Positions 14,511 to 22,167 of a stretch of 64,000 nucleotides of DNA are shown here, in pieces; the stretch's first letter is position 1; every line of letters begins with the position of its first letter. This DNA comes from Methanogenium organophilum. Lineage in GTDB: Archaea; Halobacteriota; Methanomicrobia; Methanomicrobiales; Methanomicrobiaceae. The stretch covers positions 1,612,001-1,676,000 of the forward strand of contig NZ_CP113361.1 in NCBI RefSeq assembly GCF_026684035.1, in the 5' to 3' direction. The position numbers were made by a program, and so were the translations under genes. The notes under the pieces are model-generated. The model was not told the origin of the DNA. It worked only from the letters and a program-made list of their open reading frames with translations, and searched no databases.

Positions 14511-14591
14511 AAATCCTCAAAATAGTCACCAAATATTACGGATATTCAATTACCCCTTTATTGACAAGATATTGGTATCGTGCATGGCCAC

Positions 14592-15809
14592 ATGAGTGTT
14601 TCGCCTGAGACAATCACCATTTTCACCCCCCGCCCGCTCAACCAATATCACCCCGCACCCCGACCCCTCACCATGTCGCAGCACTATCTCATGTACAACC
14701 AGACACTCATCCGCGACCCCGAGGTCTTTGAGTTCAATTATACACCTGACGCCATCCACTATCGTGACATCCAGCTCCGGCAACTCGCCGGAGCCCTCAG
14801 CCCTGCCCTGCAGGGGGCAAGCCCCATCAACGCAAACCTTCGCGGGCCGCCGGGGACCGGGAAGACTACCTGTGTCCGGAGAATCTTCAGCGAACTGGAG
14901 GAGACCTCCTCCTGTGTAGTGCCCGTCTTCGTCAACTGCGAGAGCGTGGGTACCGCCTTCCGTGTCTTTGCAGCCGTCTTTGAGCGGCTCTTCGGGCAGC
15001 AGCCCCCGCTCTCCGGCATTCCCCTCCAGCGGCTCACCGATCCTATCGCAGCGGAACTCATCCGGCGGGAGGCAGTCCTCATCGTCTGCCTGGACGACGC
15101 CAACTATCTCAGCCAGACGGGGCAGTTCGACGTGGTGATCCGTTCCCTTGTCCGGATGTATGAGAACTATCCGGGGGTGAAGACCGGCGTCGTCACCACC
15201 ATCAGCGACCATTCCTTCTGCCCCCTCACCGTCCTCGACCCGGCGGTGATCTCCGTCTGGCAGCCCGATGAGATCCTTTTCTCCCCCTACGGAGAAGATG
15301 AGGTTCGGAGCATCCTGCAGGATCGTATCCGGATGGGTCTCTATCAGGGAGTAATCCCGCCCGGCATCCTGGACCACATCACTGCCCTCACGATGGAGGC
15401 AGGGGACCTCCGGGTCGGCATCGACCTCCTGAAACATTCCGTTCTCACTGCCGAACGGGATGCCCATATCTCGGTCGTGGAAGACAACGTCAACACCGCC
15501 TATGAAACCGCACGCGGTGCCCACCTCACTCTTCTCATAGAGGGGCTGAAACCGGGTCCGGAACGGCTGCTCTCCCATATTATTCAGATGAAACAGGAGG
15601 AACAGACGGCATCACTCACCTCCCGCATCCTCTATGAGTCATTCAAAGAGACACGGGACATCTCCTATACCGCTTTTCGTAGCTGGCTTCGGAGGCTCTC
15701 TGATCTCCGGCTCATCGATATACGCCAGCGGGCCGCGAAAGGGAATGCACACGAGATTGAACTCCGGTTTGATCCCGGGTTGATGGAAAATTGTGCAGAC
15801 ATAAATTGA
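14592..15809 (+). CDS. Cdc6/Orc1-type AAA+ ATPase
   Basis: The 405-residue protein has Walker A GPPGTGKTT, a Walker-B-like VLIVCLDDANYL (DD where DE is usual) and a C-terminal winged-helix part (AFRSWLRRLSDLRLIDIRQR). This is the plan of the archaeal origin recognition protein. The start is uncertain: GTG 14580, ATG 14592 and ATG 14673 are in frame. Chromosomal copies usually lie by an origin; I saw no convincing origin recognition boxes nearby. With the primase-helicase at 18.9-21.8 kb it may belong to an integrated plasmid or provirus. Confidence 0.82.
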   Translation: MSVSPETITIFTPRPLNQYHPAPRPLTMSQHYLMYNQTLIRDPEVFEFNYTPDAIHYRDIQLRQLAGALSPALQGASPINANLRGPPGTGKTTCVRRIFSELEETSSCVVPVFVNCESVGTAFRVFAAVFERLFGQQPPLSGIPLQRLTDPIAAELIRREAVLIVCLDDANYLSQTGQFDVVIRSLVRMYENYPGVKTGVVTTISDHSFCPLTVLDPAVISVWQPDEILFSPYGEDEVRSILQDRIRMGLYQGVIPPGILDHITALTMEAGDLRVGIDLLKHSVLTAERDAHISVVEDNVNTAYETARGAHLTLLIEGLKPGPERLLSHIIQMKQEEQTASLTSRILYESFKETRDISYTAFRSWLRRLSDLRLIDIRQRAAKGNAHEIELRFDPGLMENCADIN

Positions 15810-15846: not shown

Positions 15847-16209
15847 TCAATTTAATTTATTTATCACTGTTTCTGCCTGGCGTATTGCCTGCCGGGCAAT
15901 TTGTTCATTTGCTTTGTATGAGGGGTCATTATAGTCACTACTATTCCGCCATTCCCGAAGTCGTTGAAGGCTCCTCACAATATCGGATTTTCCCGATGTT
16001 CGGAAATGTTCTCTCAGAATTAAATGATCATCTGCAGTGTTTTCCGGTATAAATCCAGAATTATCCTTTGCATAATATTTTGCATGGCAAAACGCGGCGT
16101 AATAAGCACGACTGATAGCACTGCGGTAAGCGGCCTCTTCGTTAATATCATCAATATTTCTTAAAAGAAAACGTGCAATTCCAATATAATGAGACCATTG
16201 AAAAGACAT
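15847..16209 (-). CDS. HEPN-domain protein
   Basis: The 120-residue all-alpha protein has AISRAYYAAFCHAKYY and RLREWRNSSDY, both typical of HEPN domains. The strict RNase motif R-x4-6-H is not seen; RNSSDY occurs instead, as in several HEPN subfamilies, so RNase activity is not certain. It starts 2 bp after the gene ending at 16212 and is the third gene of a probable operon with a TIGR04255 protein. HEPN proteins are often toxins or effectors in toxin-antitoxin and defence loci. Confidence 0.8.
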   Translation of the reverse strand: MSFQWSHYIGIARFLLRNIDDINEEAAYRSAISRAYYAAFCHAKYYAKDNSGFIPENTADDHLILREHFRTSGKSDIVRSLQRLREWRNSSDYNDPSYKANEQIARQAIRQAETVINKLN

Positions 16210-16211
16210 GA

Positions 16212-16796
16212 TTAGAATGATTTTGGTTTAAAATCCGTTGTTACCAATAACCAGCCTGAAGTATTTGTTAACGCCTCTTCATATTCGTCGCAGACAGTTT
16301 CAATCTGATCTAAAATATTATCGTCATACGAATCCTGCCGGACATATATGGAAACATATTCATCATTAAATTCCGGATCATGATATAGTTCAACAGAAAT
16401 CTCTGATCCCTCCCCGAATTTTTCTTTCGTCAGAATAGAAGCATAGAGCAACACATCATAGAATCCAGGATTTCTCACGCTGTAATCAACCACTTCATCT
16501 ACATTTGGAAATTCAATTCCCAGATACGTGTTCAATCCAAATAATGAATTTTCAATTGAAGAGTAGGAACTAATTGTGTCAGAACACATTTCGTAAAAGA
16601 ATAATTTTGCAAACTCCTGAAACATTTCCTGCCCTGAATCAGAATAGGCATTGCCAAAGAGACGGATGAAAAGTTTCCATAGCTTTGTTAGCCAGGGATC
16701 AGAATCCTCAATTTCATTAAAGCATTCTTCCGGGAATCTGAATTTCTATTCCTGTTGACCAAATGGCAATAAGACTGAAGACTGATTCAAATACAT
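16212..16796 (-). pseudogene. Unknown gene of the TIGR04255-HEPN operon, interrupted by an in-frame TAG
   Basis: The ATG at 16796 overlaps the TAA of the upstream gene (TAATG), the usual form of coupling. Its frame reads MYLNQSSVLLPFGQQE, then TAG at 16746-16748. It then continues without a stop (KFRFPEECFNEIEDSD) through MFQEFAKLFFYEM to 16212. A shorter product could start at 16625 (137 residues; GGCAGGAA precedes that ATG). The full frame would be about 193 residues plus the amber codon. Either this is a point-mutated gene, or the upstream part is not coding. No family is recognised; the product looks soluble and acidic. Confidence 0.65.
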
Positions 16797-17536
16797 TATT
16801 TTATCTCGTTGAATGATTCTTTCATTTTTTCAGTAATGCATCCATTAAAGAGCTTTTTTAACTCCATATGTGCATTCTCGATCCATTCAATTGCATCTTC
16901 CGGCCGGACAGAGTAGTTCGGTGCTGTATAATATTCCTCTCTGAGCAGAAATGCATTGCTCTCTTTTTTTGAGGGGAATGTCCTTCCCAAATCCAGTTTT
17001 GACAACTCAGCTCCGTTTTTGTGGACAAATTCACATCCAACAATGAAATTTGCGACGTCCTGAGGGAATTGGGGGGATACGTGAGGATAGAAATTAAAAT
17101 AGTCTCTTAATTCGAATTTTTTGTCCTCAATTTCTATCTTATTAATGTATAACAATCCAATTCGATCAATTTCTTTTATTTCAACAATTTCCTGTAGTGT
17201 ACTATAGACCTGATCAATTTTCTGGCTGAAGATTTCCCAGGATGGATACGGTTTAAGACAGTTAACTGAAATCATCCGGGGATATATCTGAATAAGGATT
17301 TTACCGTCTTCGCTGAGAAATATATCATTGGAGACAGGTTCGGCTTTTTGACTTTCTATCCCTTTTACATTGGCTTTTAATTCTAATTTATGGCTGATTT
17401 TTTGTTTCTTTTCAGGAAAATCATCCTTTAATTTATCGTATAAAATTGAAGCAAGATCTCCCTTCCATTCGGTATCTTTTGAGAATCTGAATTCACAAAC
17501 TACCTCTTGTATTGGGGAGTACTGGAGATCTGCCAT
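16796..17536 (-). CDS. TIGR04255 family protein
   Basis: The 246-residue product begins MADLQYSPIQEVVCEFRFSK; the EVVCEFRF motif and the later IGLLYINKIEIEDK are typical of the TIGR04255 family, which is sporadically distributed in bacteria and archaea. Its molecular function is not known. Its stop overlaps the start of the interrupted gene and the HEPN gene follows, so it is the first gene of the operon. AT-rich composition fits the accessory island. Confidence 0.8.
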   Translation of the reverse strand: MADLQYSPIQEVVCEFRFSKDTEWKGDLASILYDKLKDDFPEKKQKISHKLELKANVKGIESQKAEPVSNDIFLSEDGKILIQIYPRMISVNCLKPYPSWEIFSQKIDQVYSTLQEIVEIKEIDRIGLLYINKIEIEDKKFELRDYFNFYPHVSPQFPQDVANFIVGCEFVHKNGAELSKLDLGRTFPSKKESNAFLLREEYYTAPNYSVRPEDAIEWIENAHMELKKLFNGCITEKMKESFNEIK

Positions 17537-17680: not shown

Positions 17681-17849
17681 TTCTCACACCACCCCCTCTC
17701 TCCGGTTCCACTCCCTAACCAGCCGGGCATAGCACGCCTCGCAGATACTTGTCCGCTGTTTTTCGGAGTGATGCCGCCCTCTCACCACAGACATCACAGC
17801 TCCCGAGCGAGACCGGCAACCGGCGAAAGGACGTATGATCCAGGATGCC
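17681..17849 (-). repeat. Degenerate copy of the 3' end of the primase-helicase gene (direct repeat A)
   Basis: This segment aligns with 18875-19048 in the same orientation, including an identical stretch encoding RTSICEACYARLVREWNR. Small indels put the upstream part out of frame, so it can no longer encode the zinc-finger tail. An open frame of 72 codons (17684-17902) remains but is a relic. Together with copy B it brackets about 1 kb carrying the truncated DUF3800 gene. Confidence 0.8.
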
Positions 17850-18119
17850 GTGGGAGGGACAGAAGTGAGGGGAATCCCGTTTCTTCCCCCTTTTAGCACC
17901 ATTTTAGCCGAGATCTAAATTTACCCCTGTAGCAAAATAATCCAAACGGTGAAATGTTTCAAATATTCTCAAATTTTAATTATTTTCTCCATTGGATGAG
18001 AAATATTACCAATATATCTCAATGATAATAACAGATAAGCTCAATACTATTTTTGTGGATATTTTCATCGATGTTTTAAGAAAATACGGCAAAATGATCT
18101 CAAGAAAGAGATTAAACAA
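17850..18119. other. AT-rich gap before the DUF3800 fragment
   Basis: About 270 bp without a recognisable gene. The DUF3800 frame is open back to about 18039 without a usable start codon. Confidence 0.5.
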
Positions 18120-18611
18120 ATGTCTGAATTTAAATTCAGCAATTCGAATGACCTCATAAAACGTCGGGTATTTAAATGCCTTAACACCTGCAATATTTCT
18201 ATTGCCTATTCTTATTTTAGAAAAGAAGAGATAGATCCACATTTAAATGGGAATTATCAGAATCTCTATGTTGATCTTAGCGCTTCTTTGATATCCCAAA
18301 TTTCAGCGCATTCATCCAGTGTTAAACCCATTAATCTTGTAATAGACAGGTCACTCTATGGTAGGAAAAAATCAGATTTTGACTATAATGTGACATCCAG
18401 AATACTGGATTATCCGGGGAATGGAATTGATGATGCCAATTTCATTTCAATTAAACATGTAGACTCAAAACGAGAATACTGTATTCAGGCAGTGGATTTC
18501 ATTGCGGGTGCTATCAACAGGAAATATCTGTTAAATGAAACTGAATATTACGATATAATTAAAGATAAAATGATAATGGAGCTGAATTTCTTTGACGAAT
18601 TCAAGAATTAG
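18120..18611 (+). pseudogene. DUF3800 protein, N-terminally truncated
   Basis: The 163 residues match the middle and C-terminal part of DUF3800 proteins: KFSNSNDLIKRRVFKCL, NLVIDRSLYGRKKSDFD and the conserved YCIQAVDFIAGAINRKYL. Full-length members are longer and start with a DESGD-type motif. No such motif is found upstream in any frame, although this frame is open back to about 18039. The family has an RNase H-like fold and often occurs in mobile elements and defence loci. It lies between the two direct repeats. A short functional protein cannot be excluded. Confidence 0.65.
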
Positions 18612-18874: not shown

Positions 18875-19048
18875 TTCTCACACCACCCCCTCTCCCCGGT
18901 TCCACTCCCTAACCAGCCGGGCATAGCACGCCTCGCAGATACTCGTCCGCTGCTCTTTGGACTGATACACCGCTGCCCCTTCACCACAGACCGAACAGCT
19001 CCCAAGCGGGACCGACGACCGGTGAAAGGACGTATGATCCAGGATGCC
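18875..19048 (-). repeat. Direct repeat B: intact 3' end of the primase-helicase gene
   Basis: This is the intact counterpart of 17681-17849. It encodes the C-terminal zinc-finger tail (CSVCGEGAAVYQSKEQRTS) of the large protein. The pair forms imperfect direct repeats in the same orientation. Confidence 0.8.
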
Positions 19049-21814
19049 AGGCAGGGGCAGGGTAGCGCCGGACGGCCTCCCTTTGTGCACCTTCGTGCTC
19101 CCTGTGGGAGTGTTGCAATCTGGTTTCCACCTCATATTTCCCGTCTGCGGCCCGGAATTCTGCAACGGCCGATTCACCACTGAATTCACCGCTTCTTTTG
19201 CACTCCCGTCGTGATCACAGACACCATCACTCCCCCATACTGAGGCAGGTGATACCGCGGTGTCGGGTGTTACCGGTAATCCGTGCAACCTCTCCTTACT
19301 CTCTGTACGCCTCTCTTCTCTCTCTTCCCCTGTACAAAAAACAGAGACAGAATGGGCTTCCGGTTTGTTTGCGCAATCCCTGGAATTCCGGTGCAAAGAG
19401 GGTGGAAGGATACGATTCTCCCCTGCACCACCTGCAGCATCACCGCCATCGTCATCATCGTCTCCATCAGAATCGCTGCCATTCACTTCTTCATCAAGCC
19501 AGACGTCCGCCTGGGCTGACCATCCCCGATAATGCAGAAGGTCAAAGGAGAAGTAGTGTTCACGCCTGCGACACTCCACGCCGCAGATCTCTTCTGCCAC
19601 GGTTGCGTCAATGAGACTTACTGCAGGGCACTTATCAAGAATACCCAGATAGGTGGACCGGCTGTTCGTGTAGCCATGCAGGAGCCGATAGGTCTGGTGA
19701 TACGAGAGACCGAGGGCATCCTGAAGCTGACGGATGGTGAATACCTGCAGGTCCAGCCGGGTGATCGTTGCAAGGGCAGCCGACTCGTTTCGGGTCAGCT
19801 TCGTCTCCTGCCCGCCGACATTGCCGTTGATCGCAAGAAAGAGCTGCCGGGCATAGACGAAGTCATCATACGTAGAAATGACAGTCCCGTCCTCATCCTT
19901 CTCCCGCTGAAGGAAGTTCAGCACTGCGTGACACTTGATCAGGTCGAAGAGCATCGCCGGGTTGCGTCGGTTATGGGCCGCTGAAAAGTTTATCCGACCG
20001 GCAAACGGGATACGCACCTGCCGGACGGCCCCTTTCAGGATCTCCCACATCGCCCGGCAGACAAGAACGTCCGGGTCATTGGTTGCCGAAGGCACCATTC
20101 CCATCTCAACCTGTTTCAGATGGGCAAGAACTGCCCGGTCCTGACCGGTTGAGTCGTCTATCCAGACCGTGAGCATCCGATTCATCACCTGATCGTCTCC
20201 GATGGCCTCCACCTTGGCAAGCCACCAGACGCACCGCTCAGGGATGCTGCATAACTTGAGATGCCGATCGCGGGTGAGCGTCCGGTGCTCAACCGGTTCC
20301 TGGAAATTGGCTGTTGCAGACTTCAGGAGTTCCTGCATGTCGTCTGAAAGTGCGACGTCATCAAAGAGAATTACCGTCCCCGGCAGGAGGTCTTCGTAGT
20401 AAAAGAGCGCCTTGTTCGAGACCGTGCCCTTCAGCCGGTACGCCTCGGGCAGAAGGCGGAGCATCGCATTGCAGGCATGGGTCTTGCCCTTGCCGGAGTT
20501 GCCGGATATGGCAACGTGCAGACCGGAGGTGTTCTCCACTGATTGTGAGGCAACGGACATCGCCAGGCACTCGGCGACCGTCTGGTCGCCGACATGGTTG
20601 CGGTGGAAGACGTCAAGGAGGAACTGGACCGGGTCGCCGTTTGTAAGAATCTCCAATGCCTGTTTGCGTTGTTCCTGCATTTCCGCTGAGGTGTCCGGCA
20701 GAAGAGGAGGAGATGGGAGATTCTCCGGCGGTTCTTCAGAACGGTGTGACGACTCCTTTTTGGGTGGTCTCGTCCCACCGTTTTCTTTCCCTGCGGCCCG
20801 CTCCGGTTCATACATGGCCCGGAGTTCCTGCCAGCGCTGGCTGCCGCCGCCGCAGGAGTTGTGATGGCATCCGGCAAAGAGGGCACCGTTTCCAAACTGG
20901 ATGGCAAACGCCCCGTCGGTGTGGGCGCTGGAGAACGGGCAGGTGTCGAGGGTGAATAACGTGCCGCCCTGCCAGGGTTTTTCGGTTTTGACGCTGATGC
21001 CGTGGGTCGTGAGCCAGTGTCCCAGGTCAAACGAACCCCGGCGTTTGCCGGTCGCGGGGACGGAGCGGGGAATCGCATCGGCCAGTTCCCGGAGGAGTGC
21101 TTCGGAAACGATCTGCGGCTCATCGGGGGCGGAGCAGATGCGGGCTCTCCGGTGGGGCCTCTCAGGAGTGCTGTCCCCCTTTCTGGCTGTTGTCCCGTAG
21201 AGTTTCCAGATGCGTCCGGCGTTGAAGTTCGCGGTGTCGCAGTGGACGGTTGCGTCTGAGAAGAGGGCATCGAGGACGGTGAGACACCCCTTCACGAGCC
21301 GGGTGGCCTCGCCATCGTTCGGGAGGTCGATTGCGTACAGGAGGTGGGCACCGTTGCCGGAGTCGGCGAGGATTGGTTCCGGAAATCCTCTCTTTGTGAG
21401 CCAGGCCGCAACGTCTTCGGCCCGCTCAAGGGCGGCGGCATGTTCCGCGTCGGTCGCGGAGACACCGCTTGGCCGGACGGGGTCAAAGTCAATCGGGAGC
21501 CACCGGCGGCGGCAGATGTCTGCGTCAGCAGTGGTGGCGTCACTCCGGGAAAGATGTTGTTTGACACGATTCGCCCGCCGGGAGAGGAGGGCCGGGTTCA
21601 CCTCGTTCAGGGTGACATAGATGCCGTGTACATCGGTGAAACGGTTCATCGCTGCCGCCCGCTCTGCCATCGCATCGAAGTCGGTGAAGTAGCCGCTGTG
21701 CACGCCGCCGTCGCCGAGGGCCCGGAGTTCGACGACGGCTCCGTCGGAAAAGAGCAGGGAGAGGGTGTCCCGGATCTCCCGGAAGCGTTCGTCTTTTGGC
21801 TGGTTGGCACTCAT
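18878..21814 (-). CDS. Primase-helicase fusion protein of plasmid/provirus type
   Basis: The 978-residue product starts at ATG 21814, which overlaps the stop of the preceding gene (ATGA) and has GGGGTG upstream. The N-terminal third looks like an archaeo-eukaryotic primase: acidic LPIDFDPVRPSG (about 106-117), SGNGAHLLYAI and RIWKLYGTTARKG. Next is a CHC2-like finger (CPFSSAH to CHHNSC). A helicase-like ATPase has Walker A SGNSGKGKTHA (about 437-447) and Walker B TVILFDDVALS. A winged-helix region, an Asp-rich linker and a C-terminal zinc finger follow. It probably primes and unwinds DNA for an extrachromosomal or integrated element. Confidence 0.8.
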   Translation of the reverse strand: MSANQPKDERFREIRDTLSLLFSDGAVVELRALGDGGVHSGYFTDFDAMAERAAAMNRFTDVHGIYVTLNEVNPALLSRRANRVKQHLSRSDATTADADICRRRWLPIDFDPVRPSGVSATDAEHAAALERAEDVAAWLTKRGFPEPILADSGNGAHLLYAIDLPNDGEATRLVKGCLTVLDALFSDATVHCDTANFNAGRIWKLYGTTARKGDSTPERPHRRARICSAPDEPQIVSEALLRELADAIPRSVPATGKRRGSFDLGHWLTTHGISVKTEKPWQGGTLFTLDTCPFSSAHTDGAFAIQFGNGALFAGCHHNSCGGGSQRWQELRAMYEPERAAGKENGGTRPPKKESSHRSEEPPENLPSPPLLPDTSAEMQEQRKQALEILTNGDPVQFLLDVFHRNHVGDQTVAECLAMSVASQSVENTSGLHVAISGNSGKGKTHACNAMLRLLPEAYRLKGTVSNKALFYYEDLLPGTVILFDDVALSDDMQELLKSATANFQEPVEHRTLTRDRHLKLCSIPERCVWWLAKVEAIGDDQVMNRMLTVWIDDSTGQDRAVLAHLKQVEMGMVPSATNDPDVLVCRAMWEILKGAVRQVRIPFAGRINFSAAHNRRNPAMLFDLIKCHAVLNFLQREKDEDGTVISTYDDFVYARQLFLAINGNVGGQETKLTRNESAALATITRLDLQVFTIRQLQDALGLSYHQTYRLLHGYTNSRSTYLGILDKCPAVSLIDATVAEEICGVECRRREHYFSFDLLHYRGWSAQADVWLDEEVNGSDSDGDDDDDGGDAAGGAGENRILPPSLHRNSRDCANKPEAHSVSVFCTGEEREERRTESKERLHGLPVTPDTAVSPASVWGSDGVCDHDGSAKEAVNSVVNRPLQNSGPQTGNMRWKPDCNTPTGSTKVHKGRPSGATLPLPGILDHTSFHRSSVPLGSCSVCGEGAAVYQSKEQRTSICEACYARLVREWNRGEGVV

Positions 21815-22167
21815 ACGAAACACCCCATGATGTCGGGCATCACCGGGAAGAGCGGGGCGGAGACGGCCTCACCACGGACCACCTGCCGGAAACTTGCCAG
21901 GGGGACGGAAAAGAGGCCCGTCCGGGTGACCACCAGCACCGCCCGGCCGGAGGTATGGACGGTGATGTGTCCGTCGATGACGGTCGTTCCGAAGATGGCT
22001 TTGTCGGGGCGGACGTCTCTGTCCCCGATCCGGGCGAGAGGCACGCTCTGCCCGTAGGTGAGCAGGGTGTGGGTGTCGTCTCTCGTGAGGGGATAGGTCT
22101 CCTCTGCGATGGTGATGGAGAGGGTTCCCCCTCTCCCGCGGGCGATCGTGCCGGGTTCAGTCTGCAT
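21811..22167 (-). CDS. Unknown small protein upstream of the primase-helicase
   Basis: The 118-residue product starts MQTEPGTIARGRGG; GGGTGGTG precedes the ATG at 22167, and a GTG at 22176 is also open. It overlaps the upstream gene and its TGA overlaps the ATG of the primase-helicase gene, so it is part of a tightly coupled operon. The sequence is rich in beta-prone segments (GHITVHTSGRAVLVVTRTGL). No family is recognised. Confidence 0.65.
   Translation of the reverse strand: MQTEPGTIARGRGGTLSITIAEETYPLTRDDTHTLLTYGQSVPLARIGDRDVRPDKAIFGTTVIDGHITVHTSGRAVLVVTRTGLFSVPLASFRQVVRGEAVSAPLFPVMPDIMGCFV

What the first reader, a model, noticed from the sequence alone, without database searches (positions are those of the whole stretch)
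15847..17536. TIGR04255/unknown/HEPN operon with an in-frame amber codon in its middle gene
Three tightly packed minus-strand genes form an AT-rich cassette: a TIGR04255 protein, a gene whose TAATG-coupled start (16796) leads into an in-frame TAG at 16746-16748 and then an open frame to 16212, and a HEPN protein 2 bp further on. HEPN proteins are common effectors in defence and toxin-antitoxin loci, and the TIGR04255 family has no known function. The amber codon could mean recent loss of an antitoxin or partner, or use of a downstream start at 16625.
Basis: partly seen in the sequence, partly recalled or inferred. Interest (0 to 1): 0.72.

Follow-up and report, generated by a model that had tools for sequence, protein, structure and literature searches.

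The report
Uncharacterised three-gene HEPN defence-like operon
A methanogen carries one copy of a previously unnamed three-gene module, found across archaea, bacteria and plasmids and often beside anti-virus genes, that probably holds an RNA-cutting protein in check; here its middle gene is interrupted by a recent stop codon.

Summary
Three coupled minus-strand genes encode a TIGR04255 protein, a protein of no known family (MID, split by an in-frame TAG) and a HEPN protein. The operon is real: the same genes in the same order occur in Methanomicrobiales, at least six bacterial lineages and a Thermus megaplasmid. They often lie beside or inside restriction-modification, CRISPR, PglZ, Avs or Hma loci. 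In Methanogenium sp. MK-MG the same operon has an intact 194-codon MID, with lysine (AAG) where this genome has TAG. No pyrrolysine synthetase was found, so TAG is read as stop. All three genes show purifying selection (Ka/Ks 0.16-0.26), so the nonsense change is recent, or it is a sequence error. MID-HEPN is the core: plasmids carry it as a two-gene cassette, and the first gene varies. The HEPN lacks the canonical Rx4-6H motif but keeps R, D-Y and an alternative histidine, a geometry shown to work in retron-Kva2. AlphaFold gives the TIGR04255 protein a TBP-like double fold. Best reading: a sensor-inhibitor-RNase module of toxin-antitoxin or abortive-infection type. Here only a truncated MID core, from the next in-frame start (16625), could still be made. 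Function is inferred, not shown.

The parts
16796..17536 (-). First gene: TIGR04255 family protein, 246 aa; predicted TBP-like double fold; proposed sensor/recognition subunit
   Evidence: NCBIfam E 6.6e-44; the 12 best relatives in the phylum all lead the same operon; AlphaFold pLDDT 92.6; Foldseek to TBP prob 0.97-1.0, E 3e-4, but TM only about 0.3
16212..16796 (-). Middle gene (MID), 194 codons, interrupted by TAG at codon 17; no known family; proposed inhibitor/antitoxin of the HEPN protein
   Evidence: homologues found in other genomes have no stop inside
16746..16748 (-). In-frame amber codon (TAG); AAG (Lys) in Methanogenium sp. MK-MG; lysine in most Methanomicrobiales homologues
   Evidence: no PylS over its cut-off in this genome
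16212..16625 (-). Frame from the next in-frame start codon (M58), 137 aa, containing the whole confidently folded MID core (residues about 77-190)
   Evidence: short core-only MIDs exist elsewhere (118-133 aa)
15847..16209 (-). Third gene: HEPN protein, 120 aa, with R-x3-D-Y in place of Rx4-6H plus an invariant upstream His; proposed RNase effector
   Evidence: Pfam PF05168; invariant R88, D92, Y93, H62 in 28 sequences
14580..15809 (+). Neighbouring orc1/cdc6-like gene: one border of a variable island; in MK-MG the same gene and the operon are separated by about 16 kb of mostly defence genes
   Evidence: Pfam; comparison with L041; Pfam/PADLOC of L041

Best explanation
The three genes form a conserved, horizontally spread HEPN effector module of the toxin-antitoxin / abortive-infection kind. 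Shown: the operon, its gene order, its spread, its frequent defence neighbourhoods, the variant HEPN motif, and the nonsense codon with an intact relative. Inferred: the HEPN protein is a dimeric RNase built from R88 and the alternative H62. MID binds it and keeps it off. The TIGR04255 protein, a TBP-like fold, senses infection or failure of a neighbouring restriction system and relays this, perhaps through the variable N-terminal extension of MID. In this genome a recent Lys-to-amber change cuts MID at codon 17. Either re-initiation at M58 still supplies the inhibitory core, leaving HEPN restrained but uncoupled from the sensor, or the operon is poorly expressed and decaying.
For: Operon: all three genes in the same order in 12 of 12 Halobacteriota genomes that hold MID, this one included; in 17 of 21 GTDB contig loci, among them Desulfobacterota, Chloroflexi, Coatesbacteria, Rokubacteria, Stahlbacteria, Zixibacteria and Nitrospinae; and on Thermus plasmid pTB1. 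Defence context: hsdS-operon-hsdR (L022, L047; hsdR next to it in L046), hsdS just upstream (L025), type IIG, PglZ, Avs2, Hma, HKD+Snf2, type I-C cas, type I RM+SIR2+AAA_21. Core pair: the 20 best HEPN relatives in the phylum are all preceded by MID, and Gloeothece plasmids carry MID-HEPN alone with overlapping genes. HEPN: invariant R88, D92, Y93 and H62. Retron-Kva2 HEPN also lacks the canonical motif and uses H64+R122; either mutation abolishes defence (PMC13405049). Amber: AAG in MK-MG; PylS not found; Ka/Ks 0.19 for MID, 0.16 for HEPN, 0.26 for TIGR04255.
Against: No experiment on any member. Viral-contig searches found no MID. The defence enrichment was measured on few regions, and the control regions held a Dnd-type cluster. 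The TBP-like match has low TM (about 0.3). An invariant acidic/Arg set in MID (D140, D145 nearly, R153, D188) could mean it is an enzyme rather than a plain inhibitor. If MID were an essential antitoxin, a nonsense codon beside an intact HEPN should be costly.
Confidence: 0.58

Rival explanations
1. The operon is a housekeeping or stress-regulatory complex whose HEPN is a non-catalytic RNA-binding subunit; its nearness to defence genes only reflects accretion in variable islands.
For: The HEPN lacks the canonical Rx4-6H. PMC3710099 allows HEPN families that act by binding. Five of eleven archaeal neighbourhoods had no recognised defence gene among those scanned. The closest TIGR04255 relatives outside the operon are solo genes next to metabolic genes in one genus.
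Against: Sporadic presence (12 of 393 phylum genomes by the MID search; absent from congener G306), plasmid carriage, nesting inside hsdS-hsdR, and an invariant R + H pair of the kind that a relative uses for catalysis.
Confidence: 0.2
2. A PrrC-like second line: the module is an accessory of type I restriction systems and is unleashed when restriction is blocked.
For: Operon or solo MID between hsdS and hsdR, co-directional (L022, L036, L047), hsdS immediately upstream (L025), hsdR adjacent (L046), type I RM in the MK-MG island; PMC3710099 describes this logic for HEPN genes in RM operons.
Against: Many loci have no type I RM nearby (Avs2, Hma, cas, PglZ, or nothing recognised), and the window itself shows no hsd gene beside the operon.
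Confidence: 0.15
3. The amber codon is a sequencing or assembly error, or the gene is read through.
For: A single base in an otherwise conserved frame with purifying-like Ka/Ks. Reads are not available.
Against: Complete single-contig genome, completeness 99.88%. No PylS over its cut-off, so no known amber sense coding.
Confidence: 0.15
4. The locus is already dead in this genome: the amber plus polarity silences MID and HEPN and the remaining frames will decay.
For: No SD-like sequence before M58 or HEPN is obvious, and HEPN begins 2 bp after the MID stop, so it may depend on translation through MID.
Against: TIGR04255 and HEPN are intact and constrained, and no other lesion was seen.
Confidence: 0.3

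Closest known systems
HEPN-T class typified by AF0298 (PDB 2hsb) and AbiV (PMC3710099)
   Same: R of the motif kept, D in place of the catalytic H, and an alternative conserved H between helices 2 and 3
   Different: Those are described with MNT or as solo Abi genes; here the partners are MID and TIGR04255, which that paper does not describe in the passages read
Type IX retron HEPN (retron-Kva2, PMC13405049)
   Same: HEPN without canonical motif, weak sequence match to our profile (E 0.004), His+Arg active site, HEPN held inside a multi-protein complex until a phage trigger
   Different: Retrons need a reverse transcriptase and msDNA; none is part of this operon
HEPN-MNT type VII toxin-antitoxin (HepT-MntA) and PADLOC PDC-M05
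   Same: Short antitoxin-like gene translationally coupled to a small HEPN gene
   Different: No nucleotidyltransferase: MID hits no MNT model. PDC-M05B gives only a weak HEPN match (E 0.002)
RnlA-RnlB (RNase LS family)
   Same: Per PMC3710099 some RNase LS HEPN proteins are fused to a TBP-like domain; here a TBP-like protein and a HEPN are encoded in one operon
   Different: Separate genes; HEPN of another class; MID not compared directly with RnlB
Toxin-antitoxin-chaperone (TAC) modules
   Same: Three genes, with a third protein possibly acting on an antitoxin extension
   Different: No SecB-like protein recognised; TIGR04255 showed no SecB match among the listed sequence or fold hits

Membership tests
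TIGR04255 family | NCBIfam model score over curated cut-off | tested here: met
   150.6 bits vs 30, nearly full length 4-252 of 252
HEPN superfamily (PF05168) | Pfam score over gathering cut-off | tested here: met
   37.2 vs 22 bits
HEPN superfamily, canonical RNase | Rx4-6H catalytic motif | tested here: not met
   R-x3-D-Y in all 28 aligned sequences, no H in the motif
HEPN-T AF0298/AbiV variant | R kept, D for H, alternative conserved H upstream | tested here: met
   R88, D92, Y93, H62 invariant against the description in PMC3710099
HEPN-MNT type VII TA | Nucleotidyltransferase antitoxin gene | tested here: not met
   MID has no Pfam, NCBIfam or PADLOC hit
Type IX retron | Reverse transcriptase and ncRNA in the operon | tested here: not met
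   No RT among the adjacent genes inspected; the ncRNA was not searched for
Pyrrolysine-coding archaea | PylS present | tested here: not met
   No match over the TIGR02367 cut-off in the whole genome; 1 of 14 control genomes exceeds it
Toxin-antitoxin module | Toxicity of one gene neutralised by the other | not testable with these tools
   needs expression
Anti-phage defence system | Protects against a virus | not testable with these tools
   only genomic context here
TBP-like fold (first gene) | Two beta-alpha-beta4-alpha repeats; structural match to TBP | tested here: inconclusive
   Foldseek prob 0.97-1.0 and E 3e-4 to several TBPs, but TM about 0.3, rmsd 11-12 A

The most novel reading that the evidence does not exclude
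A modular immune device with exchangeable sensors: a constant MID-HEPN core (inhibitor plus non-canonical RNase) onto which different first genes are plugged (the TIGR04255 TBP-like protein, and several unrelated-looking proteins of about 220 aa), while TIGR04255 itself is also plugged onto other effectors. The N-terminal extension of MID would be the coupler.
Probability: 0.33. Interest if true: 0.78.

Novelty: new variant of a known kind. Interest (0 to 1): 0.6.

Why it matters
It would add an unnamed, cross-domain HEPN module, missed by the PADLOC release used here, with a middle family that has no model in the libraries searched and a fold without a close relative among solved structures. 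It gives the functionless TIGR04255 family a testable role. The strain studied is a natural mutant: an amber codon that removes the N-terminal extension but leaves the core frame of the putative inhibitor beside an intact putative RNase.

Tried and rejected
Pyrrolysine decoding of the TAG: no PylS. A second MID copy in the genome that could complement: none. MID relatives in viral contigs: none. MID fold match in PDB or viral structures: none significant. Papers naming TIGR04255: none in the library. PDB sequence matches for MID and TIGR04255: none meaningful. Homology of the alternative first gene in L039 to TIGR04255: not detected, so it is called unrelated-looking only. MID length with versus without a TIGR04255 neighbour (median 185 vs 143, p 0.015) is only suggestive because the sequences are related and starts are guessed. 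One PADLOC call failed through wrong coordinates.

Full report
Observation. The three genes are read on the minus strand, overlap or nearly touch (TAATG at 16798-16794; 2 bp between MID stop and HEPN start), and are AT-rich (34-37% GC in a 50% GC window). The genome is a single 2.65-Mb contig and has one copy of the operon. Its closest relative found is Methanogenium sp. MK-MG, listed as the same genus, so the window very likely comes from Methanogenium.

The amber codon. In MK-MG (L003/L020) the same gene is open for all 194 codons. The DNA is almost identical around the site, with AAG GAA in MK-MG where this genome has TAG AAA. In the alignment of 31 MIDs, 10 of the 12 Methanomicrobiales operon sequences with a residue at that column have lysine (counted by eye). 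PylS was not found over its curated cut-off in this genome, while 1 of the 14 control genomes exceeded it, and TAG ends 8 of 52 long frames in the window, so it is an ordinary stop. Between the two genomes, Ka/Ks is 0.26, 0.19 and 0.16 for the three genes. The gene was therefore under constraint until very recently, or the codon is an error; reads are not available.

What remains. The next in-frame start codon is ATG 16625 (residue 58), which is not conserved (Q in MK-MG). AlphaFold places a low-confidence, partly disordered N-terminal part before a confident core (pLDDT about 90 or more from about residue 81 to 190). A product from M58 would hold the whole core. Core-only MIDs exist in nature: 118-119 aa in Gloeothece plasmids, 131 and 133 aa as solo genes in L014 and L036.

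Conservation. The MID search of 393 genomes of the phylum found it in 12, this one included, and all 12 carry the three genes in the same order. Genome G223 also has one MID-HEPN pair without TIGR04255 and two further MIDs without a detected HEPN or TIGR04255 neighbour. The GTDB contig scan gave 21 loci, 17 with all three genes, from Methanomicrobiales and from Desulfobacterota, Coatesbacteria, Rokubacteria, Chloroflexi/Anaerolineae, Stahlbacteria, Zixibacteria, Nitrospinae and other bacteria. Thermus brockianus plasmid pTB1 carries the complete set, its HEPN at L134:4291-4683.

Core and variable parts. Those searches started from MID, so HEPN and TIGR04255 were also searched on their own. The 20 best HEPN relatives in the phylum are all preceded by MID or a divergent MID. 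The 12 best TIGR04255 relatives all lead MID-HEPN; a second tier (E about 1e-80), mainly one genus, is solo; and distant ones in L093, L094 and L096 lead a different three-gene set. In L110, L112 and L114 a different gene of about 220 aa stands in first position before MID-HEPN; L117 and L119 look similar but their MID-like genes were judged by eye. Hence MID-HEPN looks like the core, and the first gene like an exchangeable addition.

Defence context. In MK-MG the orc1/cdc6 gene beside our operon and the operon itself are both conserved (85% and 89% DNA identity), but about 16 kb with a type I restriction enzyme, a DNA methylase, an AAA_21 protein and a SIR2-like protein lies between them. The site is thus a variable island. 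Elsewhere the operon sits between hsdS and hsdR (L022, L047), next to hsdR (L046), directly after hsdS (L025), or beside a type IIG enzyme (L021), PglZ (L033), Avs2 (L034), a type II methyltransferase (L038), Hma (L045), HKD+Snf2 (L048) or type I-C cas genes (L026/L049, read by eye). Six of eleven archaeal test regions held a recognised defence gene. Eleven control regions from the same genomes gave no type I RM family among the 25 most frequent hits, but did contain a Dnd-type cluster and some methyltransferases, so the enrichment is suggestive and no p-value is claimed.

Likely chemistry. The HEPN proteins share invariant R88, D92, Y93 and H62. PMC3710099 describes this pattern (R kept, D replacing H, alternative H from the helix 2-3 insert) and suggests an alternative active site. 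In retron-Kva2, a HEPN without the canonical motif uses H64 and R122 at the dimer interface; either mutation abolishes defence, and activation depletes tRNA-sized RNA (PMC13405049). Our profile finds that chain weakly (E 0.004), and finds 9xbd/9xbc, which differ at the Tyr of the D-Y motif (Y versus F). The TIGR04255 model is confident (pLDDT 92.6) and Foldseek returns TBP at E 3e-4 with probability up to 1.0 but TM about 0.3; the order of elements (beta-alpha-beta4-alpha, twice, the second copy degenerate) fits TBP by inspection. MID has no structural relative found; its invariant D140, R153, Y157, T186 and D188 and nearly invariant E142 and D145 leave open that it is an enzyme.

Mechanism and confidence. 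Most likely this is a toxin-antitoxin or abortive-infection type module: HEPN as RNase, MID as inhibitor, TIGR04255 as sensor (0.58). Steps shown: anatomy, conservation, context, motif. Steps inferred: catalysis, inhibition, sensing, and use of M58. For this genome I consider a truncated but still inhibitory MID about as likely as an already silenced operon.

Noticed in passing
window 17681-17863 and 18875-19061: A repeat of about 185 bp (87% identical) that matches the 3' end of the 981-aa ORF 18878-21823 (-); it brackets a DUF3800 gene (18120-18611). Five further copies lie elsewhere in the genome, and MK-MG has a copy in its defence island (L041:15262-15430). It may mark cassette insertions.
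   Followed up: partly
L093:1405-2978, L094:1480-3241, L096:1480-3066: A second conserved three-gene set led by TIGR04255: TIGR04255, a small protein of about 70-140 aa, and a protein of about 180-210 aa with a shared S/Q-x-C-D/S motif. Unnamed, no Pfam hit for the member tested.
   Followed up: partly
L118:127-3322: A HEPN of this class inside what looks by eye like a cas operon (Cas6-like and Cas8-like neighbours), preceded by a short MID-like gene.
   Followed up: no
L079-L092: A solo TIGR04255 gene conserved through one genus of Methanomicrobiales (most of these loci, E about 1e-80) without MID or HEPN; in G365 (L092) it is broken by a TGA.
   Followed up: no
L135:2648-3375 and L136:2642-3390: Two-gene MID-HEPN cassettes with 4-bp or 1-bp gene overlap on Gloeothece plasmids, one of them typed conjugative.
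   Followed up: yes
window 18878-21823 (-): 981-aa ORF without any Pfam match, primase/helicase-like by eye, neighbour of the variable island.
   Followed up: no
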